From contig OZ020255.1 in assembly GCA_963971285.1 (NCBI GenBank), positions 5,642,001-5,706,000 of the forward strand: a stretch of DNA of 64,000 nt, written 5' to 3'. A program made the position numbers and the translations under genes. This DNA is from Astropecten irregularis. Its lineage: Eukaryota; Echinodermata; Asteroidea; Paxillosida; Astropectinidae. The notes beneath the pieces were generated by a model, which worked only from the letters and a program-made list of their open reading frames with translations, made no database searches and was not told where the DNA came from. This document shows positions 2,185 to 44,900 of this stretch, in pieces (position 1 is the first letter of the stretch; each line of letters begins with the position of its first letter).

Positions 2185-2756
2185 AGGGCCAACTAACAAG
2201 TCGGTAACAATCGAGTACATGTAAAACATATACAAAGAAATTCCACTGATCGCATGTAAACAACAGTACTCAAAACACAATACATGAATTGAAGCAGCCA
2301 AAAGGAGGAAACAACATTTTTCTTCCATTTTCTTTATTTCATCAGACCCATTTTTTGTTTAAGCACAAAGTTTTGTAATTTCAGTTGTAAGTATTTCAGT
2401 AATAATAATTTCCTTATTGTTATGATAATCTTTAATTTCTGAAAAACTCCTTTAAATGGAGAAACATTACAATGTTTTTTTCCAATATTATAGTGTCCAA
2501 TTATCATAAAAGATATCTTAAATATTGTATGACCTGAGAGTTAGGGTTTACACTGGATTAAATAACATGATTGATTTTACAGATGTTTTACTATTACAAA
2601 TGAAAGATTGCAACAACATTATCAAAATGGTTAACTTGAAAATATTGCCATCATACTGGCTCATTATAAAAACATTCATATAAAAAAACCTTGCCACATT
2701 ATCTTGCTAATTCTTTGCTTATAAAGTTGATGACTTGTGTAATTACTGAAAAAAAA

Positions 2757-3604
2757 AAGTTGTGTACAAAACAACACCAAAGGTTGTATAGGATTATGTC
2801 CATCATCGGTGGATGAATCCGTACACTAATACAAAAAAAAAAAATTGTTATGTGTACAAAACAACATCAAAGGTTGCATAGGATTATGTCCATCATTGGT
2901 GGATGAATCCGTACACTAATAAAACAAAAACAAAAATTGTTATGTGTACAAAACAACATCAAAGGTTGTTTAGGATTATGTCCATCATCGGTGGATGAAT
3001 CCGTACACTAATAAAACAAAAACAAAAATTGTTATGTGTACAAAACAACATCAAAGGTTGTTTAGGATTATGTCCATCATCGGTGGATGAATCCGTACAC
3101 TTATAAAACAAAACAAAAAAATTGTTATGTGTACAAAACAACATCAAAGGTTGTTTAGGATTATGTCCATCATCGGTGGATGAATCCGTACACTAATAAA
3201 ACAAAAACAAAAAATTGTTTTGTGTACAAAACAACATCAAAGGTTGTTTAGGAATATGTCCATCATCGGTGGATGAATCCGTACACTAATAAAAAAAAAG
3301 CAAAAAATTGTTATGAGTACAAAACAAAATCAAAGGTTGCATAGGATTATGTCCATCATCAGTGGATGAATCCGTACACTAAAATAACAATTCACTAAAA
3401 ATGCAACAAAATGTTTTACATCTTGTGTACAAAAACTGCATCAAAGGCAATTTTATTAAGATTATGTCCATCATCGGTGGATGAATCCGTACACTGAAGA
3501 AGAAACCATTTGTTAGCAACCGAAATGATTTTGTTGTGAGTACTTGGACAACACTGGATTGTTGTCCAGGATTTTGTCCATCATGGATGGATGAATCCAT
3601 ACAG
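2757..3604 (-). repeat. Hairpin-forming satellite, unit 1 (9 monomers)
   Basis: Nine tandem monomers of roughly 75-110 bases occur here. Each begins GTGTAC and ends GTACAC. Each contains GGATT and AATCC arms around a TCCATC/GGTGGA stem, so a single monomer can fold into a nested hairpin. The last monomer (about 3556-3604) has TCCATC/GATGGA, turning a G-U pair into A-U. The array lies about 3.9 kb behind the stop codon of gene 1. Unit 2 has 8 monomers and unit 3 has 5. Confidence 0.85.
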
Positions 3605-7479: not shown

Positions 7480-9348
7480 CTAAGCTTGGCGCTGAGTGCA
7501 GCTATTTCGCTGCACCTCAGCGCTCTCCTGGCATGGAGATGCCCCACCAGCACCAACAGGTGTTTGATGACCAGGAGTGGTACAAGGAGTGTTGGACCTA
7601 CTCTTTGTTTGTCGTTTCTTGTTAAGAGCAGTAGTAGCATCCTTGATGAGATGTCCTGGAATGTGGATGGGATCACAGGATGGATTCCTGGAAGCTGGTG
7701 CTATGGGGCTTGGTGTCTTCTTGCGGCTTGTAGAGGACCTACCGTGTAGACTCACTGTGCTGGTCCTAGTACTTGGAGTTCCCTGATGGGAGACTTGGTC
7801 TGTCTCTGGGCCAGTCTGAAGATCAGTTGATGGCTTGTCAGTAGGTAGAGGTAATGAACTTGGTGTCAGCTTGTCAGTGACCATGGAACTCTTGTTGGAA
7901 GCTCTGCCCTGTGGAGTTGTCTTACCAAGAGGTGATTCATGGACTCCATCAGAAGGATTACTGTTGTTGGGGTGATGCATGAGTTCACTTGTAGATGGCT
8001 GATGAATGGAAAATTGGCTGCCATTCACTGCACCGTCCATCTGAGTGTGTACCTTAGACAGATGGCCTGTACCAGAGTCAGGATCAAGAGAGTTGCCAGA
8101 AAACACTGCATTGCTTATAGTCAGTATAGCAGTGTTTGAAGATTGGCGCATCTCATGAGAGCTTGACAATGGTTGTGCAGTGGATTGCATCTCACTGGGT
8201 GCGTCATTTTCCATGTCTGGAGCCTGTGATGCTTGCAGTTGGTGCTGCAGCTGTTGAACTAGGTTATTATTCAAATCATTGATAGCATCCTGCTGATTAT
8301 GTCTCTCCATGGGCTGAATCTCCATTGACAACTGATGGGTCATGCTGTGTTCCCGTGACACATCAAGATTATCCCCCATAGCACAACCTCCTGATTCAGG
8401 GAAGCCCAACTTGGTTGCAGAGTTTGCTGTATTGTGTTTGGTGTCAGCAAGTGGAGCAGAGGGTCTCAACAGTCCCTGTGGCTGGCGAGCAGAACTAGGT
8501 CGACAGGAAGAGCTGTCACTAGTAGTTGACATTTTCCCCTTGTGCAAGTTTCTTCCGGACTGCATCACATGCTTGAGACTAGGCTTGTTTGAGCCAGATG
8601 GTTCATTGTTGATAGATGTGAGGTCTGTTGTGGGATCAGTTGTTGCCAGAGTAGAAACAGTTGGCAAAGAGGCTGCATCTTCCGGTACGTGGAAAGTAAC
8701 TTTACCCTGCTTCAGCTTCCGAGATGACACTGATCTCATTGAAGAACTGTTGGATGATTTTGTGGGTCGATTGCTTCCAGCACGTTTGGGAGTATTTGAG
8801 AGCTGCTTGTTGGTAGGCTTCCTGGCACTTGCAGAGACCAGTGGTTGTTTCTGCTTAGCACGTGAATCTTTCAGAGGCAAAGAAGCACTGTTGGAACCCT
8901 TCAGTTTATCAGCAGGGTTGGAATTCTCTTTGATCCTGCTGGATGCTGATTTGGTTGGTGTCTTCTTTGTGCTCGGTGCCTTTGTCTTCTCAGATGCCGT
9001 CTGTTTGCTGTTCGGGATGGTGACTGATGAACTTTTAGAGGACTGCTTCGCACCTGTCTTTGACTTGTTTGTGCTTCCTTTGCCGTTGGCTCCATTGGCT
9101 GCTTCATGTATCATTCTGCTAGAGGCAGCCTGACCTTTAGAGACCTTCTTGCTGTCAGTGGTTGAAGGTTTCTTCCTGTCACTCACCGATTTCTTTTCAT
9201 TTGTCTTCTTGCGCTCACTGGTTTTCTTATCTTTGTCTGTTTTACCCAGGATGGCATTGCGACTCTTCTTTGAAGCCGCCTTAATGGCCCCTTTGATCTT
9301 TGAGGCAGTTGATGGCTTACATGATGGGCCAGCGACGTCAACATTCAC
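7480..9348 (-). CDS. Terminal exon of gene 1: Ser/Thr/Lys-rich region with RVxF-type motif
   Basis: A single 623-codon exon forms the C-terminal half. The acceptor is CTCAACAG followed by GTGAATGTTGAC, so the upstream in-frame ATG lies in the intron and is not the start. The product looks disordered. Its first 150 residues are rich in Lys and Ser (KKSRNAILGKTDKDKK), followed by many S/T-P sites. SSRKLKQGKVTFHVPED contains KVTF after basic residues, matching the PP1 docking pattern [RK]-x(0,1)-[VI]-{P}-[FW]. The C-terminus has TP-rich RSNTPCTTPGHQTP. The long open frame on the opposite strand (8342-9133) follows from Ser codon usage. Confidence 0.85.
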   Translation of the reverse strand: MNVDVAGPSCKPSTASKIKGAIKAASKKSRNAILGKTDKDKKTSERKKTNEKKSVSDRKKPSTTDSKKVSKGQAASSRMIHEAANGANGKGSTNKSKTGAKQSSKSSSVTIPNSKQTASEKTKAPSTKKTPTKSASSRIKENSNPADKLKGSNSASLPLKDSRAKQKQPLVSASARKPTNKQLSNTPKRAGSNRPTKSSNSSSMRSVSSRKLKQGKVTFHVPEDAASLPTVSTLATTDPTTDLTSINNEPSGSNKPSLKHVMQSGRNLHKGKMSTTSDSSSCRPSSARQPQGLLRPSAPLADTKHNTANSATKLGFPESGGCAMGDNLDVSREHSMTHQLSMEIQPMERHNQQDAINDLNNNLVQQLQHQLQASQAPDMENDAPSEMQSTAQPLSSSHEMRQSSNTAILTISNAVFSGNSLDPDSGTGHLSKVHTQMDGAVNGSQFSIHQPSTSELMHHPNNSNPSDGVHESPLGKTTPQGRASNKSSMVTDKLTPSSLPLPTDKPSTDLQTGPETDQVSHQGTPSTRTSTVSLHGRSSTSRKKTPSPIAPASRNPSCDPIHIPGHLIKDATTALNKKRQTKSRSNTPCTTPGHQTPVGAGGASPCQESAEVQRNSCTQRQA

Positions 9349-12300
9349 CTGTTGAGAAAGTGACATTTGAAAGGATTACTTATTATTGTTGAGTATGACA
9401 ACAAATTGAATAATATACATATTCCAAAAAGAGGAAGGGAAGCCATTTTTTAATTCTATATTTCGTTCTTTGTTCAGAACATCTTCATTCATTATTCAGT
9501 AAACTTTTTGTTTTGACCAATTTGCTTATGCCTGGAAAGAACAGTTTTCATTTTTTGAATATTCAGTCATGATCAATGGTAGATACTTTGTGTTGAGTAA
9601 GGGAATGGAGCTTCAACCTCAGCCAAAAAGCACAACTCCTGTATTGTGAGATTTCTACATGACTGAAATGAAGCCTGAGCCTCAGCCTCAGCTCAGAATT
9701 TGTAAATGGCCAAGGAACCCATTGGGGTGAAAAATTTGAAATGTTTATAAATGTTCTTTGTTGTACTACTTTTTAATAGCTATCTCATAATCAGCATTGG
9801 TGAGTTTTGACTCATTATTTTGGTTGGAGCACATTTATGTCTGTGATTTATTACTTACGTCATCAGTCTGGACAGACATTTCACATGTCTGAGTGGCCAT
9901 CTCAGATGTTGGCCGTGACAAGCTGATATTGGACATCTTCAGACCATTCAATATGATACGTGTCAGTTCAGTGGTATCAACTGATGTACAGGTGGAAGTC
10001 TGCAATTATTCAAAATGGACAATTGGGGTGTTTATTAATATTATAACCTATTTCAATATTACCTCAAAGTCTAAAAACAATCAACACTGTATAAAGTTCA
10101 TTCTCTATTTGTAAATTATTTGCAAAGTTGCAGGAAAGGCTGTGTTTGAAAGAGTTGACTACAGCTTGGATTTCCAAATCTTCATTTGACAGCTAGTACT
10201 TCCCACGTACTGTGTGTAATGTCAAGCCTTGTGAAGTAATGTAAATTTGACTACAAGGAGATATACAAACAGACATGATTCATTATTCATTTCACTTGAG
10301 TATTTGATCACAGAACTCACTGTATCAGTTGCAGATGACTGGTCCTTGGACATGGTTGTCAGCTCTGGAACGATGGTAGACAAAACTGCATCTACCATAC
10401 TAGCAGCCTGCTGTTCCAAGTTGCATTGAACCTCATCACTTGCTTCAAAAGCCTCTTGGATCTGGCTGCAAGGTTTGGCTGGTGTTGCATCAGGAGCCTA
10501 TACAAAGACAATAGATGACAATGAAAATTATAACTGATGCACTTTTCTGTCATCTTCATTATTTATAAAACCCTTATTTCTAAGCAGAGACTGGAATGAG
10601 AATTTGGTTTGTTTAAATTATTTGATTGTTTTGAAAATTGGAATGAGAGCACTTACATTGTCAGTAACTTGGAGCTCAGCCACTTCTTCATCCTCTTCTC
10701 CATCCAAACTAGCAAAGACGGCATCCACAAGATAAGCAGCCTCTTGCTCAAGGATAGCTGCCTGCTCTGCTGCACTTGGGGTCTGTAGAACAACCGATAC
10801 GAGTTACAAGCGGGGAATGGTTGGATATTTGGGGAGGGGCTTCTATAATGGGGGAGGTATGGTAATATAGCAGAGGGGATGGTGTCATGGTTAAAATACT
10901 TGTAAATTCATAAAGGAAATGAGAAACAGTGTGTATGATGGATGTGAAAGTCAACTTGTCATGTGTATATATTCACCATGTCAGGAGCTTGGATGGGCAC
11001 CAGTTCTTCCTCATCATCTTCTCCATCCAAGCTAGCGAACACCGCATCCACAATATAAGCAGCCTCTTGCTCAAGGATAGCTGTTTGCTGTGCTGCACAT
11101 ACGCTCTGCATGACAATCTATAATTAGACAATAACATTTGTAGGTGAGAGGAGGTGGGGGATTTGTGTGACTTAGTCTGGAGTTTGGTTGGTGGATTGTG
11201 CTGGTAGACCTATAGTATCAATTCAGCAGTCAGCGGTACTTTTACTTCATTCAATCTGTCTCTTTAATTTGTTTGACAGTGAGGCCTGTAGTGTATGTTA
11301 ACACTTGCCTTATTAGCAGCAATGTCTATGGCATTAGTGTCTTCAGCCTCAGGAAGCTGTGCCTTGTTATCATCTTCCACTCTTGCCAAAACCATCTTCA
11401 CTAGTTCAGCAGCTTCCTGCTCAAGACTGCTAGAAGAGTCCTGTAAAATGCAATCACAAGAATCATAAGTTATTGCCAAAATGTGTCACAATGTACCAAA
11501 AGACTGTACGGGCACATGTTGTCAATGGCTGCATGACTGTAACGTACCTTGCATCCAGTCTCGACTGGTGGGGTGACTTGTTCCTCCATGGTGTTATCAA
11601 CGGAGGTCTTGGCCTCAGTCACGACTATCAGTCTGGAATGGATAGATGCAGAGCTGCTAGGAGACTCAATGGCTGCAGTGATCTGAAATGTCATAGAAAC
11701 AGTCACACAACAAGTCCACATGCACAACGTTAATTCATTTGTTTAAAGTTTTTATGATATCATTTTTCCCATAACCCAAGAGAACATTGCAGTGACTGCT
11801 GTACAAGTATACCCACTACATGAATACAGGTAAAGTTGTATACCATATAGAAGTTGTTTTCACTTTATATAAAACACTTTATATCAAAACATGGAATGAT
11901 ACACTGTGGTACAGACTCCTCCGGGCTTAAGTTCCATCAATGAACCAGAATCAATAACACAAGCCAAGAAAGTTCATTCATGGCTTCCTTGAACGTTACC
12001 ATCCCAACACATCAACATGTGACGAAACTGACCTTATCTTCAGCAGTGTAATCCTGGTCAATGGTCTTGTTACCATCCTTGACACTCACTGGTGCAGCTA
12101 TAATGGTAGCATCATCATCCTTAGTAGTCATGGTAGTCTTATCATTGATGACTGGCTCCTTGCTCAGTCCCTGTAAAACAAATTTGTATTTACTAAAGGT
12201 TTTGCCTCATCAATATCACCATGACTGTGATTATCATCACCAAGAATTATCATCACCACCAATAATAATGGCAATAATTGATCAGCACTTATTATGAACC

Positions 12301-15300
12301 AGAACGTATCAAGTGGGCTAACAATTGAGCATTAAATATAAGTGGAGCTACTCACCTCAGATGTCATATCAGTAACAGGTGGTTTATCCACAGTGTTGTC
12401 AACACACAGGCTAGCCTCACTGACAACAATCAGTCTAGAACAGACAGATGCTGAGCTGGTAGGACGCTCAGTGACCGGGGTAGGCTGCAATGAAAGACAG
12501 ACACATTTAATTAATAAGTCCTTCTGTTCTATAACTCAATCAACTAACTGTGTCTTTATATTCTCATTACCTTGATCAGCCCACTGATGGCCTTCAGGTC
12601 CTCGTTCTTGCTCATCACATCATTGTCAATGATCACCTTGGCAACTGCATCATTGATGTCAGATGCAACAGAAGCATCAGTATTCATCATCCCTTGGGGA
12701 GACTTCTCATCCTTCATCAATTCCTGTAATGACACAATAATAAGGCCATATTAATGCAGACAAAATTAGGAGACACTAGATAAGCTTGGGGGAAAATCCC
12801 AATCTCCCTTTACTGGGCGGTATGTTACCAATTACGGATGAACATTGTCAGAGGGGAGTGATACCTCCTTTAAATCATGTTGCAATTGGCACATAGAGGG
12901 CGCCAAACATTAGGAAAGCAGGTAACGGCATCTCCCAACACCTTCATACACATCAAGTGCTCCATTGACAATGATTGTGATGCCATTCCTACACAACCCC
13001 ATTCAAAGTTCAAAATGGTCTAGCATCAAGCTTGCAATCCTGACTCAAGTTCAGCGCATAATACATACAATTCTTGCTTACAGCATGAAATAACAAACGT
13101 AATTCGTACCTTCAGGATTTCCTTGTTAGTAATATGCTCAACAGTAGGGGTTTGCTCAACAGTAGGGGTTTGCTCAACAGTAGGGGTTTGCTCAACAGTA
13201 GGGGTTTGCTCAACATTAGGGGTTTGCTCAACATTAGGGGTTTGCTCAAGGGTTTGCTCGCTGGTGATGGCAGGCAACTGGACCCCTCCTAGAAATAACA
13301 AAACACAAAGAAGACGTGTGTATAATGGCTGCATTCTTTGACATGGTTGTTTTAGCAGTGGTTACTGAAAAGCTTCCCCTACTAGTGGTAGGGTGCTGTA
13401 GCCTAGTGGTCTGGCGTGTTGAACTCAAAGCGTGGTCAATCTACAGATTGTGGGTTCGAATCCAGCCATGGATTAATGGTGCTTGCGTCCTTGGGCAAGA
13501 CGCTTTGTCACTTATTGCTCCTCTTCACCAAGGTGTAAATGGGTACCTGCAAGGGTAGAGAGATGGCTTTGTGGTTTGATTAGCCCACGTGCGCTGAATA
13601 CGGTAGCCAAGGCTGTATACTCCCCAGGGAGTTGAGATGGTTTCAGGAATGTAAATTATGGCCCAATGACCAGGGGCAGATTTCACGAAACTCGTCTTAT
13701 TTTAAGATCAATCTTTTGACTTAGGAAGAATCCCGGCTGTAAGATCGATCTTAGCTATGACGTGTCCTGAAACCGATTTCACTAAACACGTCTTACGCAA
13801 GATCAGTCTGTCATGCTGATAAATAAATTGTAATATTGGATGAGGATGGCTTTTCCAAACACAAGCACCGTGTTTACTTGATTCAATTGGAGCGAATGCG
13901 TGCAACAGCTGTTGTTTTATGCTTGAGGTGTGCGCACGCAGCATGCATGAAGTACGTAAACTCAAGATGGCTGATTGCTTGAAATAATCCCTGTCAAACA
14001 ATAGACCATCCGCTAAGTTTTTCATTGTAAACTATCGAGTGCATTATGACCAACAAAGATGCTAATCTGATTAGTATGCATTGTCCATACATTAACATTT
14101 ATCATAATAAAAGGACACTAATTGGGAATTTTGTAAAGTGAAAACCAGATGATATGTTCTGCTGACCTGGGGTTGATCTTTGATAAATAAAGGACAAGAA
14201 ATGAACTTACCAAGTCCAGCTACAGCCAGAGCAGTGGCTCTCAGCTCAGCTTTACCCTTGGCCTTTGTTTCAGCCAGGGCTTTGGCCATCTTGGCCTTTG
14301 CCTGTGCACATTAAAAAAAACAACCATCAAGATGGAGTGAAGATGTAAATAAAAATTTAGCCCTATGTCCAAAATTTAGTATATGAATGTGATTGATCTA
14401 AGATGTCATTTTGAAGAGTTTTCCAAAATCAACCCATGTTTTAAAAATCAAAAGGTTACATCAGTTTTTTGGATGTAAACACTGAGATAAGTATTGCATT
14501 TTTTTTTAAGACCAAAGTTTCCTTTCTTTTCAGCTGCCTAAGTTTAATTCAGATGGCACTGGAAAATGCATTTAGATAATTTACACAGTCACAGTTTGAA
14601 GTCAGTATCATAAATTCAATGAAAATGTCAATGAAAGTTGATATTGAGAGTATATAAGTACCTTTTTCTGCTTCTTGAAAACATTCTTGGATACCGGTAA
14701 CTTCTTAGAGTTTGATTTTGCCAACTCTGCTTTGGATCCTGTGACATAAAAAAAGTAGGAACAGATGATTCTTTCCCTTTCAAATATCATGATGTAATAT
14801 AGGTTTTCCCAGTCTTTTCGGCAAATGAGCAGCCAACTTAATTTTCACGCATTCATATTGACGTGATTTTGCCTCCTCGATTAAAAAACCATCACTGGTT
14901 TTCACTTTGATGCATCCGTTTTTTTAATTATAGCATTGAATTCAGTTAAATTCAACAGTCGCAAATTTCAATGCTGTTCAAATGGAATTTTAAATTGAAA
15001 GGCGATTCTTTTTATTCGCCTGATGCTTGTTCACATTTGTTTGCACATGAAATCGAAAGACTGTTTTCAATTGCCTTGCAGTTCCACGCAGAATGGAATG
15101 ACAAAGAGTTTAAATTGTCTGCTCATTTGCCGAAAATGACCGGGAAAAATCGACAGGGCCTATTATCAATTATCTTCAATAGTGTCCTGTTTGATGAATG
15201 ATGTACAAGATGTGTGTAGGCCTACTGCATGACGCATTCCACAGCTTATGACATGGTTGTACACAAAGACAAATTCAACTAAATGCACAAGCTTCCATCT

Positions 15301-16018
15301 CTTTCATCATGTTCATAATTTGCTTGTTATCTGTTTTACTTTTAGTTTTAGAGACATGTAAAAGTTATCCATCTTCACTTATCTTTAGGCCTAGTTAGGC
15401 CTAATAATATAGGCCTAACGTTACTGTTGTTCTGATGTTTGTAAAAATTTGTCTGGGTGAATTTCTCTATTTTAAAAAACGTCAACAAAATCAGTTTTAA
15501 TTCTATCACTAATTAATGCATTACACACGCTCAGGAGCCTAGGCTATTTAATATTTGCTTCACATAACCAGCAGGGCTGCAGGCCCTACTTGAAAAAAAA
15601 ATCTTTAACTTTAACTAGGGCCTAGGTCTAATGTTAGGCTAAAAAGTAACGTTAGGGCCTAATCATATTGAGCGCAATTTTGACGCCTCTGCAAGCATGG
15701 CAAGTTTTAAACTGTGCCTTGCCCTTGCGCAATTTTTGGGATTTTTTTTTACCACGGCACAAAGCTACCTTCACTTCATTTAGGCCTAGGTTAAAAACGT
15801 TGGACACAGCCTCAGAGGTTTTGTTTAAAATGAAGTCACTTCGGACAATGGGTTAAAGATTGCGCATGTTGAAAGATTGCGCTCAACACTGCACTGGCAG
15901 TGCATTGCATTTCATTGCACAGAAAATACCCGACCGACGAACCACCATAACCAGACGGAAACTTACCTGAAATACGTGCACGGCGGCGTGTGCGTTTCTT
16001 CGTAGGCAGACAACCCAT
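7480..16018 (-). CDS. Gene 1: predicted acylated multi-helix AKAP-like scaffold
   Basis: Fourteen exons read on the minus strand: 16018-15967, 14738-14662, 14301-14211, 13288-13110, 12723-12571, 12484-12356, 12170-12033, 11682-11548, 11440-11309, 11105-10977, 10782-10657, 10497-10321, 9999-9859 and 9348-7480. All join in frame to about 1175 aa, and from exon 5 on every exon is phase 0-0. Residues 1-17 start MGCLPTKKRTRRRARIS, which fits N-myristoylation (Gly2, Thr6) plus Cys3 palmitoylation next to a basic patch. Residues 44-74 are Lys/Ala-rich and 88-123 hold EQTPTV repeats. Exons 9-12 carry amphipathic helices at about 324-339, 373-388, 416-431 and 474-489 with PKA-anchoring spacing. Exon 14 has a KVTF PP1-type motif at 769-772. 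The splice sites are read directly. The scaffold role is inference, and I recognise no named orthologue. Exon 10 could instead start at 11117, four codons upstream. Confidence 0.8.
9859..11440 (-). other. Exons 9-13 of gene 1: serial anchoring-helix module
   Basis: Exons at 11440-11309, 11105-10977, 10782-10657 and 10497-10321 each encode one amphipathic helix: LEQEAAELVKMVLARV, LEQEAAYIVDAVFASL, LEQEAAYLVDAVFASL and LEQQAASMVDAVLSTI. The hydrophobic pairs fall at the spacing of PKA R-subunit anchoring helices. The core IVD resembles that of the engineered AKAP-IS peptide (LAKQIVDNAI). Acidic tails such as DGEDDEEELVPIQ follow the helices. Exon 13 (9999-9859) has a weaker helix and adjacent ATQT and SVQT motifs, possibly for LC8. 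The exons look duplicated from one ancestor and all are phase 0-0. Confidence 0.65.
13139..13262 (-). repeat. 18-bp coding minisatellite (EQTPTV repeats)
   Basis: Inside exon 4, an 18-base unit encoding EQTPTV or EQTPNV is repeated six times after EQTL. The equivalent exon has fewer units in gene 2 (37773-37921), two in gene 3 (44551-44657), and about one in the extra exon at 50420. The unit is a multiple of three, so length changes never break the frame. Confidence 0.85.
13388..13676 (+). mobile_element. tRNA-derived SINE in intron 3 of gene 1
   Basis: The head has box A-like TAGCCTAGTGGTC and box B GGGTTCGAATCC. The body carries the motif CCTTGGGCAAGACGCTTT and then AAATGGGTACCTG, which is widespread in conserved-domain SINEs of invertebrates. 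I cannot name the family. It is absent from the same intron of genes 2 and 3, so it inserted after the duplications. Confidence 0.7.
13677..14045. mobile_element. Unclassified insertion next to the SINE
   Basis: This piece is missing from the corresponding introns of genes 2 and 3. Two related segments (CAGATTTCACGAAACTCGTC and CGATTTCACTAAACACGTC) suggest a degraded MITE. I cannot define both ends. Confidence 0.35.
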
Positions 16019-25602: not shown

Positions 25603-26050
25603 TTGTGTATAAACCACATTAAAGGTTGTATAGGATTATGTCCATCATCGGTGGATGAATCCGTACACTAATAAAAAAAAAACCCAAATTGTTATGTGTA
25701 CAAAACAACATCAAAGGTTGCATAGGATTATGTCCATCATCGGTGGATGAATCCGTACACTAATAAAAAAAAAATGAAAAATTGTTATGTGTACAAAACA
25801 ACATCAAAGGTTGCATATAGGATTATGTCCATCATCGGTGGATGAATCCGTACACTAATAAAAAAAAATGAAAAATTGTTATGTGTACAAAACAACATCA
25901 AAGGTTGTATAGGATTATGTCCATCATCGGTGGATGAATCCGTACACTAATAAAACAAAAATAACCAAATTGTTATGTGTACAAAACAACATCAAAGGTT
26001 GCATAGGATTATGTCCATCATCGGTGGATGAATCCGTACACTAATAAAAC
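25603..26050 (-). repeat. Hairpin satellite, unit 2, left part (5 monomers)
   Basis: Five monomers with the GTGTAC, GGATT, TCCATC, GGTGGA, AATCC, GTACAC layout. The array is split by a 1.7 kb insertion and continues at 27770. Confidence 0.85.
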
Positions 26051-32220: not shown

Positions 32221-35200
32221 CTAATCTCGACGCTGGATGCAGCTATTTCGCTGCACCTCAGCACTCTCCTGGCATGGAGATGCCCCACCAGCACCAACAG
32301 GTGTTTGATGACCAGGAGTGGTACAAGGAGTGTTGGACCTACTATTTGTTTGTTGTTTCTTCTTAAGAGCAGTAGTAGCATCCTTGATGAGATGTCCTGG
32401 AATGTGGATGAGCTCGCAGGATGGATTGCTGGAAGGTGGTGCTATGGGGCTTGGTGTCTTCTTGCGGCTTGAACTCTTAGAGGACCTACCATGTAGACTC
32501 ACTGTGCTGGTCCTAGTACTTGGAGTTCCCTGATGGGAGACTTGGTCTGTCTCTGGGCCAGTCTGAAGATCAGTTGATGATGGCTTGTCGGTAGGTAGAG
32601 GTAATGAACTTGGTGTCAACTTGTCAGTGACCATGGAACTCTTGTTGGCAGCTCTGCCCTGTGGAGTTGTCTTACCAATAGGTGATTCATGGACTCCATC
32701 AGAAGGATTACTGTTGCTGGAATGATGCATGAGTTCACTGGTAGATGGCTGATGAATGGAAAATTGGCTGCTTTTCACTGCACCATCCATCTGAGTGTGT
32801 ACCTCAGACAGATGGCCTGTACCAGAGTCAGGATCAAGAGAGTTGCCAGAAAACACTGCAGTGCTTATAGTCACTATAGCAGTGTTTGAAGATTGGCGCA
32901 TCTCCTGAGAGCTTGACAATGGTTGTGCAGTGGATTGCATCTCACTGGGTGCGTCATTTTCCATGTCTGGAGCCTGTGAAGCTTGCAGTTGGTCTTGCAG
33001 CTGTTGAACTAGGTTATTATTCACATCATTGATAGCATCCTGCTGATTATGTCCCTCCATGGGCTGAATCTCCATAGACAACTGATGGGTCATGCTGTGT
33101 TCCCGTGACACATCAAGATTATCCCCCATGGCACAACCTCCTGATTCAAGTGGAGCTGAGGGTCTCAACAGTCCCTGTGCCTGTCGAGCAGAACTAGGTC
33201 GACAGGAAGAGCTGTCACTAGTAGTTGACATTTTCCCCTTGTGCAAGTTTCTACCAGACTGCTTCACATGCTTGAGACTAGGCTTGTTGGAGCCAGATGG
33301 TTTATTGTTGATAGATGTGAGGTCTGTTGTGGAATCAGTTGTTGCTAGAGTAGAAACAGTTGGCAAAGAGGCTGCATCCCCTGGTGCATGGAAAGTAACT
33401 TTACCCTTCTTCAGCTTGCGAGATGACACTGATCTCATTGAAGAACTGTTGGATGATTTCATGGGCCGATTGCTCCCAGCACATTTGGGAGTATGAGAGG
33501 ACTTCTTGTTGGCAGGCTTCCCAGCACTTGCAGAGACCAGTGGTTGTTTCTGCTTAGCACGTGAATCTTTAAGAGGCAAAGAAGCACTGTTGGAACCCTT
33601 CAGTTTATCAGCAGGGTTGGATTTCTCTCTGATCCTGCTGGATGCTGATTTGGTTGGTGTCTCCTTTGTGCTCGGTGCCTTCGTCTTCTCACCTGCCCTC
33701 TGTTTGCTGTTCAGGATGGTGACTGATGAACTTTTAGAGGACTGCTTCGCACCTGTCTTTGACTTGTTTGTGCTTCCTTTACCGTTGGCTCCATTGGCTG
33801 CTTCATGTAGCATTCTGCTGGAGGCAGTCTGGCTTTTAGAGACCTTCTTGCGGTCAGCGGTTGAAGGTTTCTTCTTACCACTCACTGATTTCTTTTCATT
33901 TGTCTTCCTGCTCTCACTGGTCTTCTTATCTTTGTCTGTTTTACCCAGGATGGCATTGCGACTCTTCTTTGAAGCCGCCTTGATGGCCCCTTTGATCTTT
34001 GAGGCAGTAGATGGCTTACGGGATGGGCCAGCGACGTCAACACTAACCTGTTGAGAAAATGACATTAGAAAGGATCATTTATTTTTGTTGAGTATGACAA
34101 TATATTGAAAATATCATTTGGATGATAAGAGAAAAACATTAATCAGTAAATGGTTTGTTTTGACCAATTTGCTAATGCCCTGGAAAGAACATTTTTCATT
34201 TTGTGAATATCACTCAGGATCAATAGTCAATACTCTGTGTTGAGTAAGGGAATGGAGCTTCAACCTCAGCCAAAAAGCACAAGTCCTGTATTGTGAGATT
34301 TCTACATGACTGAAATGAAGCCCGAGCCTCAGCTTCATGCAGCTGAGAATTTGTAAATGACCAAGGAATTCATTTGGGGTAAAACCTTTGAAATTTCTAT
34401 CAATTTTCACTGTCCTACTACTTTTTAATAGCTATCTCATAATCAGCATTCCTGAGTTATGACTCATTTATTTTGATTGGAGCACATTAATGTCTGTGAT
34501 TTATTACTTACGTCATCAGTCTGGACAGACATGTTACATGTCTGAGTGGCCATCTCAGATGTTGGCCGTGACAAGCTGATATTGGACATCTTCAAACCAT
34601 TCAATATCATACGTGTCAGTTCAGTGGTATCAACTGATGTACAGGTGGAAGTCTGCAATTATTCAAAATGGACAATTGGGGTGTTTATTAGTACATGTAT
34701 ATAACCTATTTCAATGTTACCTCAAAGTCTTAAAACCAATAAACACTGTATGAAGTTCATTCTCTATTTGTCAATTATTTGCAAAGTTACAGAAAAGGCT
34801 GTGTTTTAATGAGTTGACTACAGCTTGGATTTCTAATTCTTTATATGACAGCTCGTACTTCCCATGTACTGTGTGTAACTTCAAGCGTTGTGAAGTATAA
34901 TCATGTACTATTTTATCTGATCATTATTCATTTCACTTGGGTATTTGATCACAGAACTCACAGTATCAGTTGCAGATGACTGGTCCTTGGACATGGTTGT
35001 CAGCTCTGGAACGATGGTAGACAAAACTGCATCTACCATACTTGCAGCCTGCTGCTCCAAGTTGCATTGAACCTCTTCACTTGCTTCAAAAGCCTCTTGG
35101 ATCTGGCTGCCAGGTTTGGCTGGTGGTGCATCAGGAGCCTATACAAAAACAATAGATGACAAGGAGTTTTCTGTAATCTTCATTATTTATAAAATCCTGA

Positions 35201-38200
35201 TTTCTAAGCAGAGAAAGGAATGAGAATTTGGTTTGTGTATTATTTTATCATTTAGAAAATTGGAATGAGTGCACTCACATTGTCTGTAACTTGGAGCTCT
35301 GCCACTTCTTCATCCTTTTCTCCATCCAAACTAGCAAAGATGGCATCCACAAGATAAGCAGCCTCTTGCTCAAGGATAGCTGCCTGCTCTGCTGCACTTG
35401 GGGTCTGTAGAACAACCAATACAAGTTACAAGCTGGGAATGGTTGGATATTGGGGGAGGGGCTTCTATAATGGGGAGGTATGGTAATACAACAGAGGGGA
35501 TGGTGCCATGGTTAAAATACTTGTAAATTCATAAAGGAAATGAGAAACAGTGTATATGTTGGATGTGAAAGTCAACTAGTCATGTGTATTTTCACCATGT
35601 CAGGAGCTTGGATGGGCACCAGTTCTTCCTCATCATCTTCTCCATCCAAGCTAGCGAACACTGCATCCACAATATAAGCAGCCTCTTGCTCGAGGATAGC
35701 TGCTTGCTGTGCTGCACATACGCTCTGCATGACAATCTATAATCAGACAATAACATTTGTAGGTGAGAGGAGGTGGGGGATTTGTGTGACTTAGTCTGGA
35801 GTTTGGTTGGTGGATTGTGATGGTAGACCTATAGTATGAATTCAGCAGTCAGTGGGACTTTTACTTCATTCAATCTGTCTCTTTACTTTGTTTGACAGTG
35901 AGGCCTGTATGTTAACACTTGCCTTATTAGCAGCAATGTCTATGGCATTAGTGTCTTCAGCCTCAGGAAGCTGTGCCTTGTTATCATCTTCCACTCTTGC
36001 CAAAACCATCTTCACTAGTTCAGCAGCTTCCTGCTCAAGACTGCTAGAAGAGTCCTGTAAAATGCAATCACAAGAATCATAAGTTATTGCCAAAATGTGT
36101 CACAATGTACCAAAAGACTGTACGGGCACATGTTGTCAATGGCTGCATGACTGTAACGTACCTTGCATTCAGTCTCGACTGGTGGGGTGACTTGTTCCTC
36201 TATGGTGTTATCAACGGAGGTCTTGGCCTCAGTCACGACTATCAGTCTGGAATGGATAGATGCAGAGCTGCTAGGAGACTCAATGGCTGCAGTGATCTGA
36301 AATGTCATAGAAACAGTTACACAACAAGTCCACATGCACAACGTTAATTCATTTGTTTAAAGTTTTTATGATATCATTTTTCCCATAACCCAAGAGAACA
36401 TTGCAGTGACTGCTGTACAAGTATACCCACTACATGAATACAGGTAAAGTTGCATACCATTTAGAAGTTGTTTCACTTTATATAAAAACATGGAATGATA
36501 CACTGTGTTACAGACTCCTCCGGGCTTAAGTTCCATCAATGAACCAGAATCAATAACACAAGCCAAGAAAGTTCATTCATGGCTTCCTTGGACGTTATCT
36601 TCTCTCTGCATCAATATGCCCACTCTCAGAGATAGACAACACAGAACTGATCACCTATTTCACCAACTGCCAATTCTGATCTAAAAAGCTGTAGCAGACA
36701 TACAAGATATTAATAACATGTTATAAAACCGACCTTATCTTCAGCGATGTTATCCTGATCAATGGTCTTGTTACCATCCTTGACACTCACTGGTGCAGCT
36801 ATCATGGTAGCATCATCATCCTTAGTAGTCATGGTAGTCACATCATTGATGACTGGCTCCTTGCTCAGTCCCTGTAAAACAAATTTGTATTTACTAAAGG
36901 TTTTGCCTCATCATTATCACCATGACTGTGATTATCATCACCAAGAATCATCATCACCACCATAATAATGACAATAGTATCAGCACTTATTATGAACCAG
37001 TATTTATCAAGTGGGCTAACAACTGAGCATTAAATATAAGTGAAGCTACTCACCTCAGATGTCATATCAGTAATAGTTGGTTTATCCACAGTGTTGTCAA
37101 CACACAGGCTAGCCTCACTGACAACAATCAGTCTAGAACAGACAGATGCTGAGCTGGTAGGACGCTCAGTGACCGGGGTAGGCTGCAGTGAAAGACAGAC
37201 ACATTCAATTAATAAGTCCATCTGTTATATAAATCAATCCACTAACTGTGTCTTTATATTCTCATTACCTTGATCAGCCCACTGATGGCCCTCAGGTCCT
37301 CGTTCTTGCTCATCACATCATTGTCAATGATCAGCTTGGCAACTGCATCATTGATGTCAGATGCAACAGAAGCATCAGTATTCATCATCCCTTGGGGAGA
37401 CTTCTCATCCTTCATCAATTCCTGTAATGACACAATAATAAGGCCATATTAATGCAGACAAATTCAGGAGACACTAGATAAGCGTGGGGAAAATCCCAAT
37501 CTCCCTTTACTGGGCGGTATGTTACCAAATATGGAAGAGCATTGTCAGAGGGGAGTGATACCTCCTTTAAATCATGTAGCAGTTGGCACATAGAGGGCGC
37601 CAAACATTAGGAAGCAGGTAACAGCATCTCCCAACACCTTCATACACATCAAGTGCTCCATTGACAAAGTTCAAATTGTTCTGGCATCAAGCTTGCAATC
37701 CTGACTCAAGTTCAGCACACGATACATACAATTCTTGCTTATACAGCATGAAATGACAAACATAATTCGTACCTTTGGGATTTCCTCGTTAGTAATATGC
37801 TCAACAGTAGGGGTTTGCTCAACAGTAGGGGTTTGCTCAATAGTAGGGGTTTGCTCAGGGATTTGCTCAGGGGTTTGCTCAAGGGTTTGCTCGCTGTTGA
37901 TGGCAGGCAACTGGACCCCTCCTACAAAGAACAAACAAAAGAAGCAGTGTGCATAATGGTTGACTATATCTGGTTGTTTTTGCAGTGGTTACTGAAACCT
38001 TCCCTTACTAGTCTAGTGTGCACTGCATGTTACATAGACCACGTTTACACTTGATCGCACTAGGACGATCAAAGGAGGATCAGATCCCGCAAGGGCAATC
38101 AAAGGGCGATCAACAGCTAGTGTAAACGCAAGAGCGATCATCGTCACGTTCCTCTCCGTTTCTGAAATCCCGTATTTATTTATTTATTTATTCCACATAA

Positions 38201-40909
38201 GAGCATCGTTTTGTTTAAAAGCACTGTGAAAAGGTGGATCAATGCGCGATCAGACTCAAGTGTAAACACGTTAACAACTCCATGCGGGATCTGATCCATC
38301 TTTGATGATCGCCCTAGCCGGATCATGCTGGATCAAGTGTAAACACGGTCATAATGGTTCAGTTTCATATGTCATGAAGCGCTATTAAAACAAGTTAGCA
38401 CCTGGAATAAAGTAACAATTATATAACCAACCCAGATGCTAATCTGGTTAGTATGCATTGTTCGCACATTAATATTCATCATAATAATCGGACACCCATT
38501 GGGAATTTTGTTAAGTGGAAACCATATGATATGTTCTGCTGACCTGGGATTGATCTTTAATAAATAAAGGACAAGAAATGAACTTACCAAGTCCAGCTAC
38601 AGCCAGAGCAGTGGCTCTCAGCTCAGCTTTACCCTTGGCCTTTGTTTCAGCCAGGGCTTTGGCCATCTTGGCCTTTGCCTTTGCACATAAAAAAAAACAT
38701 CAAGATGGAGTGAAGATGTAAATTAAAATATCGCCCTCTGTCAAAAATTTAGTAAATGAATATGATTGATCTAAGATGACATTGTGAAGAGTTTTCTACA
38801 ATCAATCCAAATTTTAAAATTCAAAAGGTTGCTTCAGTATTTTGCATGCAAACACTGAGATAAGTATATTGCATCTTTGTCAGGACCCAAGTTTCTCTTC
38901 TTTTCAGCTGCCTAAGTATATTTCAGGTAGCACTTGGAAATGCATAAATTTAGATAATTTACACAGTCACAATTTTTTGAAGTCAGTATTATAAATTCGA
39001 TCATAATGTCAATGAAAGTTGATATGAGAGTATTTACGTTAATTTGCGTACCTTTTTCTGCTTCTTCAAAACATTCTTGGATACCGGTAACGTCTTAGAG
39101 TTTGATTTGGACAATTCTGCTTTGGATCCTGTGACATAGAAATGTAGGAACAGATGATTGTTAGGAATCTTTCCTTTCCAAATGTCATGATATAGTAATT
39201 ATTAACAATTAACTTCAAGTGTCCTGTTTGATAAATGATGTACAAGATACGTGTACTGCATGATGTATTTCACAGCTTATGCCACGGTTGTACAATATAC
39301 ACACAAAGACAAATTCCACTTAAAGGCACAACCTTGTGCCTCTTTTAAAATTTCATCCAATTGGCTTCTGACTGCCAAATGAATAAAGATAATTGACTAT
39401 TGGGGTCACCACCAACGAAGGGCTGGATGGCTCAGTTGGTAGAGCTCCTGTACGGTATTCATGCAGGAGGTCGCCAGTTCGAATCCCGCTCCTGTCAATT
39501 TTTCTTTGTTCACTTTTTAATGTCTTTTATAATTTGCTATTATGCATTAACACTGAATCTGGTTAAGACATGGAGGTAGAAACAAATCCAAAAACATGTT
39601 TAAGAGAGATGTACTCAAGTACTGCATCTGCACTGTTCTACTAGATAAGCAGATGTAAGTATTTGTGAAAAATGTGTTTGATTTATATCTTGTATTCAAT
39701 ATTTCCAGGTGCATTTCTATATTTGTTTTGACGTGATGTTTAATTATTAATAAGTTGTTGGACCTATATTGTGCTCCCTACAGCCTGGGTCAGCTGTTCA
39801 AGAGCGTAAATCATGTACATGTATACAAATTAAAAAATCAGACAAATATACAATAAATTAGTAAGAAATAAGCAAAATATGTAATTAACAAGCACATAAT
39901 TAAAACAACAACATACCAAATAATAGGTAATAAATTGCCAGGGAAATATCATCTTTACAGATGACAGTTACAATAACACTTAACAGATACAAACCACCAA
40001 GAAAAACTTTAAAAAAAAGAAAGATTGGCTCCCAATCCTAAGAAAATAGTTTAAGCAAAAAACAAGTCCTACTAGGCAGGCAAATTATGGAGCAAATGCA
40101 TAGTCTCAACAAGTACAAATTGATGAAGTAGGCCCTATTATTCTTAACTAAAACTTTGTGGTAAAGTTTACTCATTTTCCAAACATCATCAATATCACAA
40201 AACACATCACAGCCACTGTCAGGTCACACGTCCAGCATACAATAATAAAGCCAAGGTTACACTTTTTAAGTTACAGTTAAACTTAATGTAGAAACGACAT
40301 CTTTCACTTTCAGTTTCACTCAGTTGAGGAGACCAAAAGTAAACGGTTTTAGGCTATAAAAAGTCAGCAAAATTCACAACATTAATTCTATCGTAAATAT
40401 TAATGCATGATATAGGCCTAGGTGCCTACGCTATTGAATATTTTCTAAACATAATCATATGGGCTGGGCCCTGGGACGAAAATTGTTTTCTAGGACAGGC
40501 CTTGGGCCTAACGTTAGGCCTAACTTTACTTGAAAATGTTGAGCGCAATTTTGACGCCTCCGCAAGTTTTAAACTGGGCCTTGCGCAATTTTGAATTTAA
40601 GATTTGTTTGGGATTTTTTTTAACCGCGGCACATAGCGACATTCTATTCAGTTAGGCCTAGGTTAACATGGTTAAAAACGTTGGACACAGCCTCACAGGT
40701 TTTCTTTAAAACCAAGTCACTTTGAACAAACGCATAAAGATTGCGCAGGTTGAAAGATTGCGCTCAACAAAAAAACTCCACAAAAAGTGACAATCAATGG
40801 CAGTGAACAAAAAATACCGACTGACCGACGAACAACCATAACAAGAAGGAGACTTACCTGAAATTCGTGCACGGCGGCGTGTGCGTTTCTTCGTAGGCAG
40901 ACAACCCAT
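32221..40909 (-). CDS. Gene 2: paralogue of gene 1, AKAP-like scaffold
   Basis: Fourteen exons: 40909-40858, 39128-39052, 38678-38588, 37921-37773, 37421-37269, 37182-37054, 36871-36734, 36296-36162, 36054-35923, 35724-35596, 35404-35279, 35138-34962, 34652-34512 and 34047-32221. They join in frame to about 1151 aa. The N-terminus is again MGCLPTKKRTRRRARIS. The shorter length comes mainly from fewer EQTPTV units and from a gap in the terminal exon. The anchoring-type helices are intact, with one V to I change (YLVDAIFASL). The PP1-type motif is KVTF (33391-33402). Exon order equals that of gene 1, so this looks like the less altered form of the family. No stop or frameshift is seen. Confidence 0.8.
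38037..38350. mobile_element. GATC-rich palindromic MITE in intron 3 of gene 2
   Basis: Terminal repeats are GACCACGTTTACACTTGATC and GATCAAGTGTAAACACGGTC. Inside, GATC-containing words recur in both directions, making a long imperfect hairpin. A possible ATA target duplication flanks it. It is absent from the same intron of genes 1 and 3. Confidence 0.75.
39389..39502 (+). mobile_element. Single tRNA-like half in intron 1 of gene 2
   Basis: Contains GGATGGCTCAGTTGGTAGAG and GTTCGAATCC followed by TCAATTTTTCTTTG, the same sequence as one arm of the foldbacks at 21323 and 58035. The anticodon region carries an extra ATG compared with them. Confidence 0.6.
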
Positions 40910-41911: not shown

Positions 41912-44900
41912 ATGGGTTGTCTGCATACGAAGAAACGCACACGCCGTGCACGTGCTTCAGGTAAGTTTTCTTCATCGTCGGTGTCTTGTATCATTTTTGT
42001 AAGGACCCGGCCATGACTATCGACTAAAATTAAAAATGTAGCCTGCACTGCAGTTAACGTTAGGCCTATCGGTTTTCGCTCGGATAACGGGAAAGTTTCT
42101 CAAAAATGGAATAGGCCCCTATCAGAAAATCACTCTTCAAACCTTTCAACTGGACACTTCAACTTCAAGTTCAAGTCTTTTCTTGGAAAATATTGTCCGT
42201 CATAATTTATAGGGACACCAATTCAGCTATGTAAACGCGACGTCATGTGTTTTTACTTTGATTTTCACCCCTTTGGCTGAGCGGCAAAGTTCATTGACAT
42301 CGGAGTAGCTAGCCTATGGCGCGCAAAGTCACTCAAAAATGGCTGGAATATTGTCCCGACTCGATTCTTCTTACTTGGTCAATTGAGTTTATTTTAAAAA
42401 GGTTCTAAAACAGTCTTGATTCCAAGATTTTAAATTATAGATAGGCCTAGGCCTAATTTATCAACAATATCTTGCATGACATATTTAATGGCATTTCATT
42501 GTCTTATGTTCTTACATTAACAAATAAATAGGGCCTAACGTTAGGTCTTACTCTTATTTGTCTTAGGCCTAAATAAAATTAAATCTAATGTTAATTTTTT
42601 ATCTTAATGTGAAAAATTATCACAGCATTTCTCATATTTATATCTGGCACCATTAATATTAGAGGCCTAAACATGGATACATCAGCTTATCAAAGTTTAA
42701 AGTTAAAAAGAGAAAAACAAAACCCTGTCACTCCGATTTGAGAAAGACTTTAACACTTTTGTCTCATTGGCACGCCATAAAAACCAAGATCTCAACAGGG
42801 TCACATGACCTGCCGCCTGACATCGGAAGAATGAAAGTTGCTCGAGCAGACAACAGTTTAGTTTGGAATATTTTACCACATAGGCCTAATACATCATTTA
42901 GTACACGTATCTTGTATATCATGCATCAAACAGGACGCTTGAAGATAATTAATAATACTAAAAAGTTACATCATGATATTTAAAAGGGAAACAATCATCT
43001 CTTCCTCTCTTTGTCACAGGATCCAAAGCAGAGTTATCAAAATCAAACTCTAAGAAGTTACCGGTATCCAAGAGTGTTTTGAAGAAGCAGAAAAAGGTAC
43101 CTTAATACTCTCATATCAACTTTCATTGACATTATGAATGATACAAACATCAAAATTGTTTTAACATCTTTAAATTAATTTTCCAGTCTTTCCTGAAATA
43201 TACTTTATAGGCAGCTGAAAAAAACAGAAACCATGGTCCTGAAAAAGAAGCAATATACTTATAATCTCAGTGTTTGCATGCCAAATACTAAAGCAAACTT
43301 TGCAATTTTAAAACATGGATGGATTTTAGCAAACCCTTCAAATTTCATTATTGAGATTAATCAAGATTTATCATCTTCATCATAAAAATTCTTCAGACGG
43401 CTCTATTATAGTCGCTATCTTTACTCCAACTTGATGGTTGTTTTTTATTGTAGGCTAAGGCCAAGATGGCCAAAGCCCTGGCTGAAACAAAGGCCAAGGG
43501 TAAAGCTGAGCTGAGAGCCACTGCTCTGGCTGTAGCTGGACTTGGTAAGTTCATTTTTGTGTTCTTTAAAACAAAGATCAACCCAATGTGTACAAGTGAA
43601 CCTGTATCCATATTGTATACTCTTGTGTCATGGCCATCACTATTATGATGTAAGGAAGGATTTGGTAGTATTTTCTCCACTGGCCAATACATCTGACACT
43701 TATGTGCATACAACTGCATACCCATTGATTAAAATCATTTCTTGCTTTACATTGGGTCAGCAGTATACATATGTTGTACATTATCTGGTTTTCACAAAAT
43801 TCTCAATGAATACGCCTACCTGATGATTATGAATGCATAGGCAATGCATATAAATGAATAGTAGTATCTGGGTTGGTCGTATCATTTTAACTGTATTCTG
43901 TGCTTATTTGTACTAAAACACAGCAGCACATGGGACTGTACCATTATGTAACATGTAGTGCACACTAGTCTAGTAGGCATAGATATTCAGTAACCACTGC
44001 TAAAACAACCAATAGTCAAATAATGCAGCCATTATACAGGGTGTCCCAGAAACACACTATGTTGGAAATCATTATGTCAAAATTAAACTGTTTATTTCAA
44101 GATTCAGTTATATGATATGATTATGTCAAAATTAAACTGTTTATTTCAAGATTCAGTTATATGATAAAACCATGTCTTGGCTATCACCATGTAGAATTTA
44201 AGCAAAATCAGGCCAGGATTTGCAAAAATATGACAAAATGAAAGAGTAGTCTTCAAAAAGAAATTTGCAGTATTCCAGAATAAGTGGTCAATACACACAT
44301 AATGTGTATTGAAAGAAAGATGGAAATCTGGTTTTGAGGTTGGGTAATTCAGTCTTAAGTAGTTTTTCCCTCAATTTCAGTCAAATTTTGCTCAAATTCT
44401 ACATGGAGATAGCCAAGACATGGCTGCATCACATATCTAAATCTTGAAGTGATAAACAGTTTATTTTTCATATAATAGTACTTGACACAAAGTGTTGCGT
44501 TTTTGGGGACAACCTGTACACACTACTTCTTTGTATTTTGTTCTTTGTAGGAGGGGCCCAGTTGCCTGCCATCACCAGCGAGCAAACCCTTGAGCAAACT
44601 CCTACTGTTGAGGAAACTCCTACTGTTGAGCATATTACCAACAAGGAAATCCCAAAGGTACAAATATTGTTTCTCATTTCATGCTGTAGCAACAATTGCA
44701 TGTATCAGTGTGCAGAACTCGGGATTGCAGGCCATTTTGAACTTTGAATGAGATGGCTTCACAAACATTGTCAATGGACCACTTGAGTGTACGAAGGTGT
44801 TGTGAGATGCTGATACCTGCTTCTTAGCGTCTGGTGCCCTCTATGTGCCAACCTAACTACAAGATGGTTTAAAGAAGTTATCACTCCCCTGAGTCCCCTA

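What the first reader, a model, noticed from the sequence alone, without database searches (positions are those of the whole stretch)
9859..11440. Serial PKA-anchoring-type helices in an unrecognised gene family
Four consecutive exons of gene 1 encode helices of the form LEQEAAYIVDAVFASL. In the core AAYIVDAVFASL the hydrophobic residues fall at positions 1, 4, 5, 8, 9 and 12. That is the spacing established for AKAP helices that dock into the PKA R-subunit dimer, and IVD matches the core of the AKAP-IS peptide. Most AKAPs have one or two such helices. Here there are four in genes 1 and 2 and more in gene 3. The helices and acidic tails are seen in the sequence. R-subunit binding is inference.
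Basis: partly seen in the sequence, partly recalled or inferred. Interest (0 to 1): 0.85.

Follow-up and report, generated by a model that had tools for sequence, protein, structure and literature searches.

The report
Echinoderm serial kinase-anchoring helix genes
Three neighbouring copies of an unrecognised echinoderm gene appear to encode a membrane-tethered scaffold with four to six helices in a row, each shaped like the known docking site for protein kinase A; binding is predicted, not shown.

Summary
Gene 1 (minus strand, 14 predicted exons, 1175 aa, no internal stop) carries four consecutive phase-0 exons with helices LEQEAAELVKMVLARV, LEQEAAYIVDAVFASL, LEQEAAYLVDAVFASL and LEQQAASMVDAVLSTI. 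Gene 2 has the same layout; gene 3 has six helices plus a truncated one. Two protein searches found the family only here. The match extends to 16 residues, gap-free, with the published AKAP consensus LxxxAxxIVxxAIxxA; IVDAV is shared with Ht31. In a matrix from six published peptides, helices 2-4 are the three best positions in the protein; helices 2 and 3 score within, helix 4 just below, the range of held-out AKAP helices; helix 1 is weak. A UIM reading is rejected. Against: Pfam's RII-binding model hits none of gene 1's helices, two of gene 3's six carry arginine at a core position, and 5 of 300 shuffled proteins reach even the best helix's score. New here: all three genes start with MGC plus a basic stretch, a likely lipid anchor as in smAKAP, and the genome encodes RI, RII and SPA17 docking domains. 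Most likely a lipid-anchored, multi-site AKAP: a new variant of a known kind. Binding is inference.

The parts
15967..16018 (-). gene 1 exon 1: MGCLPTKKRTRRRARIS, predicted myristoylation (G2), palmitoylation (C3) and basic membrane anchor
   Evidence: conserved in all three copies with donor GTAAGT at the same place; in-frame TGA 24 bases upstream read from the sequence
13110..14738 (-). gene 1 exons 2-4 (14662-14738, 14211-14301, 13110-13288): basic Lys/Ala-rich stretch, then (EQTPxV)n repeats
   Evidence: phases 1-0-1-0 join without stop
11548..12723 (-). gene 1 exons 5-8 (12571-12723, 12356-12484, 12033-12170, 11548-11682): linker; exons 6 and 8 are partial duplicates of each other (SRLIVVxEA; 78% over 60 bases)
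11309..11440 (-). gene 1 helix exon 1: LEQEAAELVKMVLARV; GC-AG intron follows
   Evidence: score 7.8, seventh-ranked position
10977..11105 (-). gene 1 helix exon 2: LEQEAAYIVDAVFASL + DGEDDEEE
   Evidence: score 12.7, best in protein
10657..10782 (-). gene 1 helix exon 3: LEQEAAYLVDAVFASL + DGEEDEE
   Evidence: score 11.4, second
10321..10497 (-). gene 1 helix exon 4: LEQQAASMVDAVLSTI
   Evidence: score 10.5, third
9859..9999 (-). gene 1 exon 13: DTTELTRIILNGLKMS..., not an AKAP-type helix by matrix
   Evidence: score -4.0
7480..9348 (-). gene 1 terminal exon: 622-codon basic, Ser/Thr-rich tail, no Pfam match at E up to 10
32221..40909 (-). gene 2: 14 exons, 1151 aa; helix exons 35923-36054, 35596-35724, 35279-35404, 34962-35138; MGC exon 40858-40909
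41912..52405 (+). gene 3: 18 exons as modelled, 1403 aa; helix exons 46341-46472, 47560-47688, 47827-47955, 48140-48355, 48460-48597, 48796-48924; truncated 49126-49317; tail partly duplicated (49599-50244, 50873-52405); an alternative end at 50324 is possible

Best explanation
The locus encodes a small, recently duplicated family of echinoderm scaffold proteins that work as A-kinase anchoring proteins. [quoted passage not shown] Four (genes 1, 2) or up to six (gene 3) short amphipathic helices, 43-67 residues apart from start to start, each dock one PKA regulatory-subunit dimer through its D/D groove, so one scaffold concentrates several PKA holoenzymes at the membrane. Site number is set by duplication of phase-0 exons. 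Shown: open frames and splice phases, repeats, motif register, N-terminus. Inferred: splicing itself, lipidation, helix formation, R-subunit binding, isoform preference (Val at position 9 suits RII; Phe at 13 is shared with the RI-selective AKB-RI peptide, so dual or RI binding is plausible).
For: 16-residue register match to LxxxAxxIVxxAIxxA (PMC3682517, passage) and to Ht31, AKAP-IS and RIAD (PMC4526808, table in a passage). hhalign of the nine distinct window helices with six published peptides: probability 57%, E 1.1e-4, 17 gap-free columns; UIM control 0.1%. A matrix from the six peptides ranks helices 2, 3, 4 as the top three 16-mers of the 1175-aa protein; 0, 2 and 3 of 12,905 E. coli 16-mers (35 of the 48 CDS in a 50-kb K-12 stretch) score as high. 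Beyond mere amphipathicity: 0.25%, 0.5% and 0.9% of random helices with the same hydrophobic pattern reach helices 2, 3, 4. Helix 2 vs 3 core codons: pS 0.37, pN 0.03. Helix exons gene 1/gene 2: dN/dS 0.23 (7 synonymous, 6 nonsynonymous changes) vs 0.47 for all exons. MGC/basic exon in all three copies. RII, RI and SPA17 docking domains in the genome.
Against: Pfam RII_binding_1 hits none of gene 1's four helices, although it finds Ht31 (5e-7); it also misses AKB-RII, a 2.7 nM binder, and scores AKAP-IS below its cut-off. A genome search with the same model does not ring at this locus, but it rang in 0 of its 14 control genomes. Shuffled proteins reach the best helix's score in 5 of 300, helix 3's in 9, helix 4's in 14, helix 1's in 88; helix 4 lies just below the held-out natives. 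With a matrix of 11 peptides the top three are again helices 4, 2, 3 (12.7, 11.6, 11.0; 8, 16 and 24 of 300 shuffles), but left-out natives score 12.2-16.8 there, so only helix 4 is in that range. Arg replaces the core residue at position 8 in two of gene 3's six helices. Helical moments are ordinary: 146, 174, 38 and 320 of 2000 shuffles reach helices 2, 3, 4, 1 (AKAP-IS 94, Ht31 20, RIAD 2). Some bulky substitutions abolish RII binding of AKAP-IS (PMC13025221 section 11); Phe13/Leu16 may do so here. PDB sequence searches gave no AKAP match, but AKAP-IS itself also finds nothing there. No transcript, orthologue or structure prediction was available.
Confidence: 0.57

Rival explanations
1. The helices dock into D/D domains of non-kinase proteins (SPA17, ropporin-like) rather than PKA, making a structural scaffold of cilia or sperm.
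For: D/D proteins beyond PKA form AKAP-interaction modules (PMC8339350, passages); a SPA17 D/D domain is in this genome.
Against: The predicted lipid anchor points to a membrane rather than the axoneme. No test here separates the two.
Confidence: 0.15
2. The helices are amphipathic acidic segments with another partner (for example a PhiXXPhiPhi activation-type motif, or self-association), and the AKAP likeness is convergence by chance.
For: The best matrix score is reached in 5 of 300 shuffled proteins; Pfam does not hit; moments are ordinary.
Against: Register and residue match beyond amphipathicity; changes among the 14 repeats stay hydrophobic at the seven contact positions except Arg8 in two gene 3 helices.
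Confidence: 0.19
3. The helices are ubiquitin-interacting motifs (Phi-x-x-Ala-Phi-x-x-Ser), which IVDAVFASL superficially resembles.
For: IVDAVFASL has Ala and Ser at UIM spacing in helices 2 and 3.
Against: UIM matrix scores -0.2 to 2.1 against 14.6-18.0 for five left-out UIMs (recalled sequences); hhalign 0.1%; Ala/Ser not kept in helix 1, Ser is Thr in helix 4.
Confidence: 0.02
4. Decaying or unexpressed duplicates whose exons are not translated as modelled.
For: Gene 3 has a truncated helix exon, Arg8 changes and a duplicated tail; dN/dS is 0.97 for exons 1-8 between genes 1 and 2, and 0.80 and 0.58 for exons 1-9 of genes 1 and 2 against gene 3. Some exon ends were set by me to keep the frame.
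Against: Three copies read 1175, 1151 and 1403 codons with matching phases and no stop; dN/dS 0.47 overall and 0.23 in helix exons.
Confidence: 0.07

Closest known systems
smAKAP (C2orf88, AKAP19)
   Same: Myristoylated and palmitoylated N-terminus (PMC13025221, passage) plus an anchoring helix.
   Different: smAKAP is a small protein binding RI; here four to six helices, a long basic tail, and no smAKAP match among Pfam hits.
AKAP-Lbc / AKAP13 (Ht31 helix)
   Same: IVDAV and hydrophobic register identical; 7 of 16 residues shared with helix 2 (counted by eye).
   Different: AKAP-Lbc is a RhoGEF (recalled); no Pfam domain above cut-off was found here.
SPHKAP (SKIP), AKAP4 and BIG2
   Same: More than one R-subunit site in one protein: two in SPHKAP (PMC10460453) and AKAP4 (PMC11276731), three potential ones in BIG2 (PMC13025221); passages only.
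   Different: Two sites, or three potential ones far apart in BIG2 (residues 34-48, 284-298, 525-539); here four to six close copies of one exon with a predicted lipid anchor.
RIAD / AKB-RI synthetic peptides
   Same: LEQ start and register of RIAD; V-F at positions 12-13 as in AKB-RI.
   Different: Designed peptides, not natural proteins.

Membership tests
AKAP (functional class) | 14-18 residue amphipathic helix with the hydrophobic register LxxxAxxIVxxAIxxA | tested here: met
   All four helices of genes 1 and 2 and four of six in gene 3; Arg at position 8 in the other two of gene 3. Helical moments ordinary
AKAP (functional class) | direct binding to an RI or RII D/D domain | not testable with these tools
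   no complex modelling offered; even the single-exon structure job found the queue full
AKAP (functional class) | own targeting domain | tested here: inconclusive
   MGCL[PH]T plus 6-7 basic residues at positions 7-17 fits a myristoylation pattern in all three genes (pattern recalled); lipidation itself untested
Pfam RII_binding_1 (PF10522) | score over the curated cut-off | tested here: not met
   no hit for gene 1's four helices nor at the locus (0 of 14 control genomes rang); control peptides: Ht31 over the cut-off, AKAP-IS 17.8 against 18.8, AKB-RII no hit
smAKAP family | sequence homology to smAKAP | tested here: not met
   no smAKAP model among Pfam matches to gene 1's N-terminal 184 aa, middle 420 aa or terminal exon
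Ubiquitin-interacting motif | acidic patch-Phi-x-x-Ala-Phi-x-x-Ser profile | tested here: not met
   matrix and hhalign with recalled UIMs

The most novel reading that the evidence does not exclude
An echinoderm-lineage AKAP that anchors four to six PKA dimers in series on a lipid-tethered chain, with valency changed between sister genes by phase-0 exon duplication and helices possibly tuned to different R isoforms: a membrane-bound PKA array unlike any AKAP in the passages read.
Probability: 0.4. Interest if true: 0.75.

Novelty: new variant of a known kind. Interest (0 to 1): 0.56.

Why it matters
Anchoring sets where cAMP signals act. In the passages read most AKAPs anchor one PKA dimer, and SPHKAP's two sites were suggested as a mechanism of cluster formation (PMC10460453). 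A natural series of 4-6 sites, varying between recent gene copies, would let one test how anchoring valency shapes PKA clustering at a membrane, in animals whose oocyte and sperm physiology depends on cAMP (recalled). It would also add an AKAP class that the Pfam model misses.

Tried and rejected
A 16-aa whole-genome query found nothing and is uninformative. PDB sequence searches with one helix exon and the helix profile gave no AKAP (the profile's only two hits, E 1.5-1.6, are ribosomal protein uL14), but AKAP-IS itself also gives nothing, so they carry no weight. Two further candidate helices in gene 1 (VASDINDAVAKVIIDN, DTTELTRIILNGLKMS) were scored and rejected (-3.3, -4.0). PKA-type sites in the tail are not clearly enriched: [RK][RK]x[ST] 7, 6, 7 in genes 1-3, reached by 44, 113 and 199 of 1000 shuffles. 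Calmodulin binding was not tested; the negative charge of helices 2 and 3 argues against it. Weak Pfam matches (DUF2267, FliN_N, zf-HC2; LED_rpt, Inhibitor_Mig-6, DUF5327) are all below their cut-offs. One paper search with six recalled native helix strings found only the MAP2 string, so the other recalled natives rest on memory. First gene models had wrong exon ends: gene 2 exon 4 (50 stops) and several gene 3 exons; they were moved to consensus splice sites and the donor at 50244 of gene 3 was my choice.

Full report
Setting. The window is C19:5642001-5706000 of a 475.7-Mb genome in 168 contigs. The COX1 on contig C168 reads sensibly only with the code in which AAA is Asn and ATA is Ile (table 9; STNHKDIGT instead of STKHKDMGT), as in echinoderms; table 9 is shared with flatworms, so 'echinoderm' rests also on my recall of echinoderm COX1.

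Gene anatomy. Exons were inferred from splice sites, phases and the three copies; there is no transcript. Gene 1 has 14 exons on the minus strand (16018 to 7480), 1175 aa, no internal stop. Gene 2 has the same layout 24-25 kb away, 1151 aa, after one exon end was corrected. Gene 3 lies head-to-head with gene 2 (1002 bases between the start codons), 18 exons as modelled, 1403 aa, after several exon ends were corrected. Its tail region is partly duplicated, and another end (890 codons with the stop, at 50324) is possible. Two protein searches of the whole genome, which score only the best candidates, found the family only here: all 31 matches to the 420-aa middle part and all 6 to the terminal exon lie in the window. 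Introns 5-13 of genes 1 and 2 are 92% identical over 1999 aligned bases; helix exons differ at 13 of 564 sites. Whether the copies are all real rather than assembly duplicates was not tested.

Helices. There are four consecutive phase-0 exons in genes 1 and 2, with cores 49, 43 and 58 residues apart, and six helix exons in gene 3. In all 14 cores positions 5 and 9 are invariant Ala and Val; positions 1, 12, 13, 16 stay hydrophobic; position 8 is I, L or M in 12 and Arg in 2 (both gene 3). Changes between helices 1, 2 and 4 are conservative at the seven contact positions and often radical elsewhere (D/K, S/R, Y/E). Helix 2 and 3 cores differ by 4 synonymous and 1 nonsynonymous changes, a sign of constraint, though on 16 codons only.

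What they resemble. The published consensus is LxxxAxxIVxxAIxxA (PMC3682517, passage). LEQEAAYIVDAVFASL fits it over 16 residues without a gap. Ht31 contains IVDAV; RIAD begins LEQ (PMC4526808, table in a passage). hhalign of the nine distinct window helices against six published peptides aligned 17 columns in that register, probability 57%, E 1.1e-4; against six recalled UIMs it gave 0.1%. A matrix from the six peptides ranked helices 2, 3, 4 first, second and third among all 16-mers of gene 1 (12.7, 11.4, 10.5); helix 1 scored 7.8 and came seventh, behind or level with three stretches that are not helices of this kind. Five held-out native helices (recalled; only the MAP2 string was found in print) scored 10.8-17.4, so helix 4 is just under that range. 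In shuffled proteins the scores of helices 2, 3, 4 and 1 were reached in 5, 9, 14 and 88 of 300. Pattern-matched random helices reached helices 2-4 in under 1% and helix 1 in 3.4%. With the five recalled natives added to the training set, helices 4, 2, 3 remain the top three (12.7, 11.6, 11.0; 8, 16 and 24 of 300 shuffles), but natives left out in turn scored 12.2-16.8, so helices 2 and 3 fall a little short of them; two designed peptides left out in turn scored 11.6 and 5.3.

Results against. Pfam RII_binding_1 hits none of gene 1's four helices nor this locus in the genome search (which rang in 0 of 14 control genomes). As a control it finds Ht31, scores AKAP-IS below its cut-off and misses AKB-RII, so the miss lowers but does not exclude the reading. 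Helical moments are not exceptional. Bulky residues at some core positions abolish RII binding of AKAP-IS (PMC13025221 section 11, read whole); Phe13 and Leu16 here may favour RI, as AKB-RI also has Phe at 13. I could not map that paper's position numbers with certainty.

Membrane anchor and partners. All three genes open with MGCL[PH]TKKRTRR, with a donor at the same place and phase, fitting a myristoylation pattern (recalled) with Cys3 and 6-7 basic residues at positions 7-17. smAKAP is myristoylated and palmitoylated (PMC13025221, passage). The genome search for the RIIa domain gave three matches of 11 candidates: RII (MSIEIPSGL..., best PDB match RII-alpha, 6.9e-12), RI (best match RI-beta, 1.5e-17) and SPA17 (2.4e-19). 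The RII keeps Ile3 and Ile5, named as key anchoring residues (PMC8339350, passage).

Mechanism and verdict. Best explanation: a lipid-tethered scaffold carrying PKA docking helices in series (0.57). Shown: sequence, register, repeats. Inferred: splicing, lipidation, helicity, binding, one R dimer per helix. It works like an AKAP by prediction; membership in the class is defined by binding and is untested. Proteins with two sites (SPHKAP, PMC10460453; AKAP4, PMC11276731) or three potential sites (BIG2, PMC13025221) make four to six serial sites a new variant rather than a new kind. One paper search on AKAP with echinoderm terms (28 papers, 12 listed) and one with sea urchin (25 papers, 12 listed) showed no such gene in titles and abstract starts, nor in the passages of three of those papers that I opened (PMC8339350, PMC10460453, PMC11276731); this is not proof of absence. 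Passages of PMC4516873, PMC9322728 and PMC2652104 were also seen but are not relied on.

Noticed in passing
18974-20614, minus strand: Open frame of 547 codons with DDE_Tnp_4 (1.3e-28) and HTH_Tnp_4 (1.6e-15): a DDE transposase between genes 1 and 2.
   Followed up: partly
46801-47298, plus strand: Open frame in the gene 3 intron between the first and second helix exons that resembles the end of a LINE reverse transcriptase by recall; no Pfam match at E up to 1.
   Followed up: partly
13110-13288, 37773-37921, 44551-44657: EQTPxV hexapeptide repeat with copy number differing between genes (EQTP 6, 4, 1 in the first 150 residues): a coding minisatellite.
   Followed up: partly
11303-11308 and the matching sites in genes 2 and 3: GC-AG intron (AAG|GCAAGT) after the first helix exon, kept in all four copies of that exon.
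   Followed up: no
2677-3339 and 25611-26000: Tandem repeats of about 92 bases inside the duplicated flank of genes 1 and 2.
   Followed up: no
L018 (C131:32162-33484): A second COX1 with a 552-aa open frame in the standard code and no stop, perhaps a bacterial contig in the assembly.
   Followed up: no
L020 (C25:9951047-9952018): COX1 copy with seven TGA on a large contig, probably a mitochondrial insertion in the nuclear genome.
   Followed up: no
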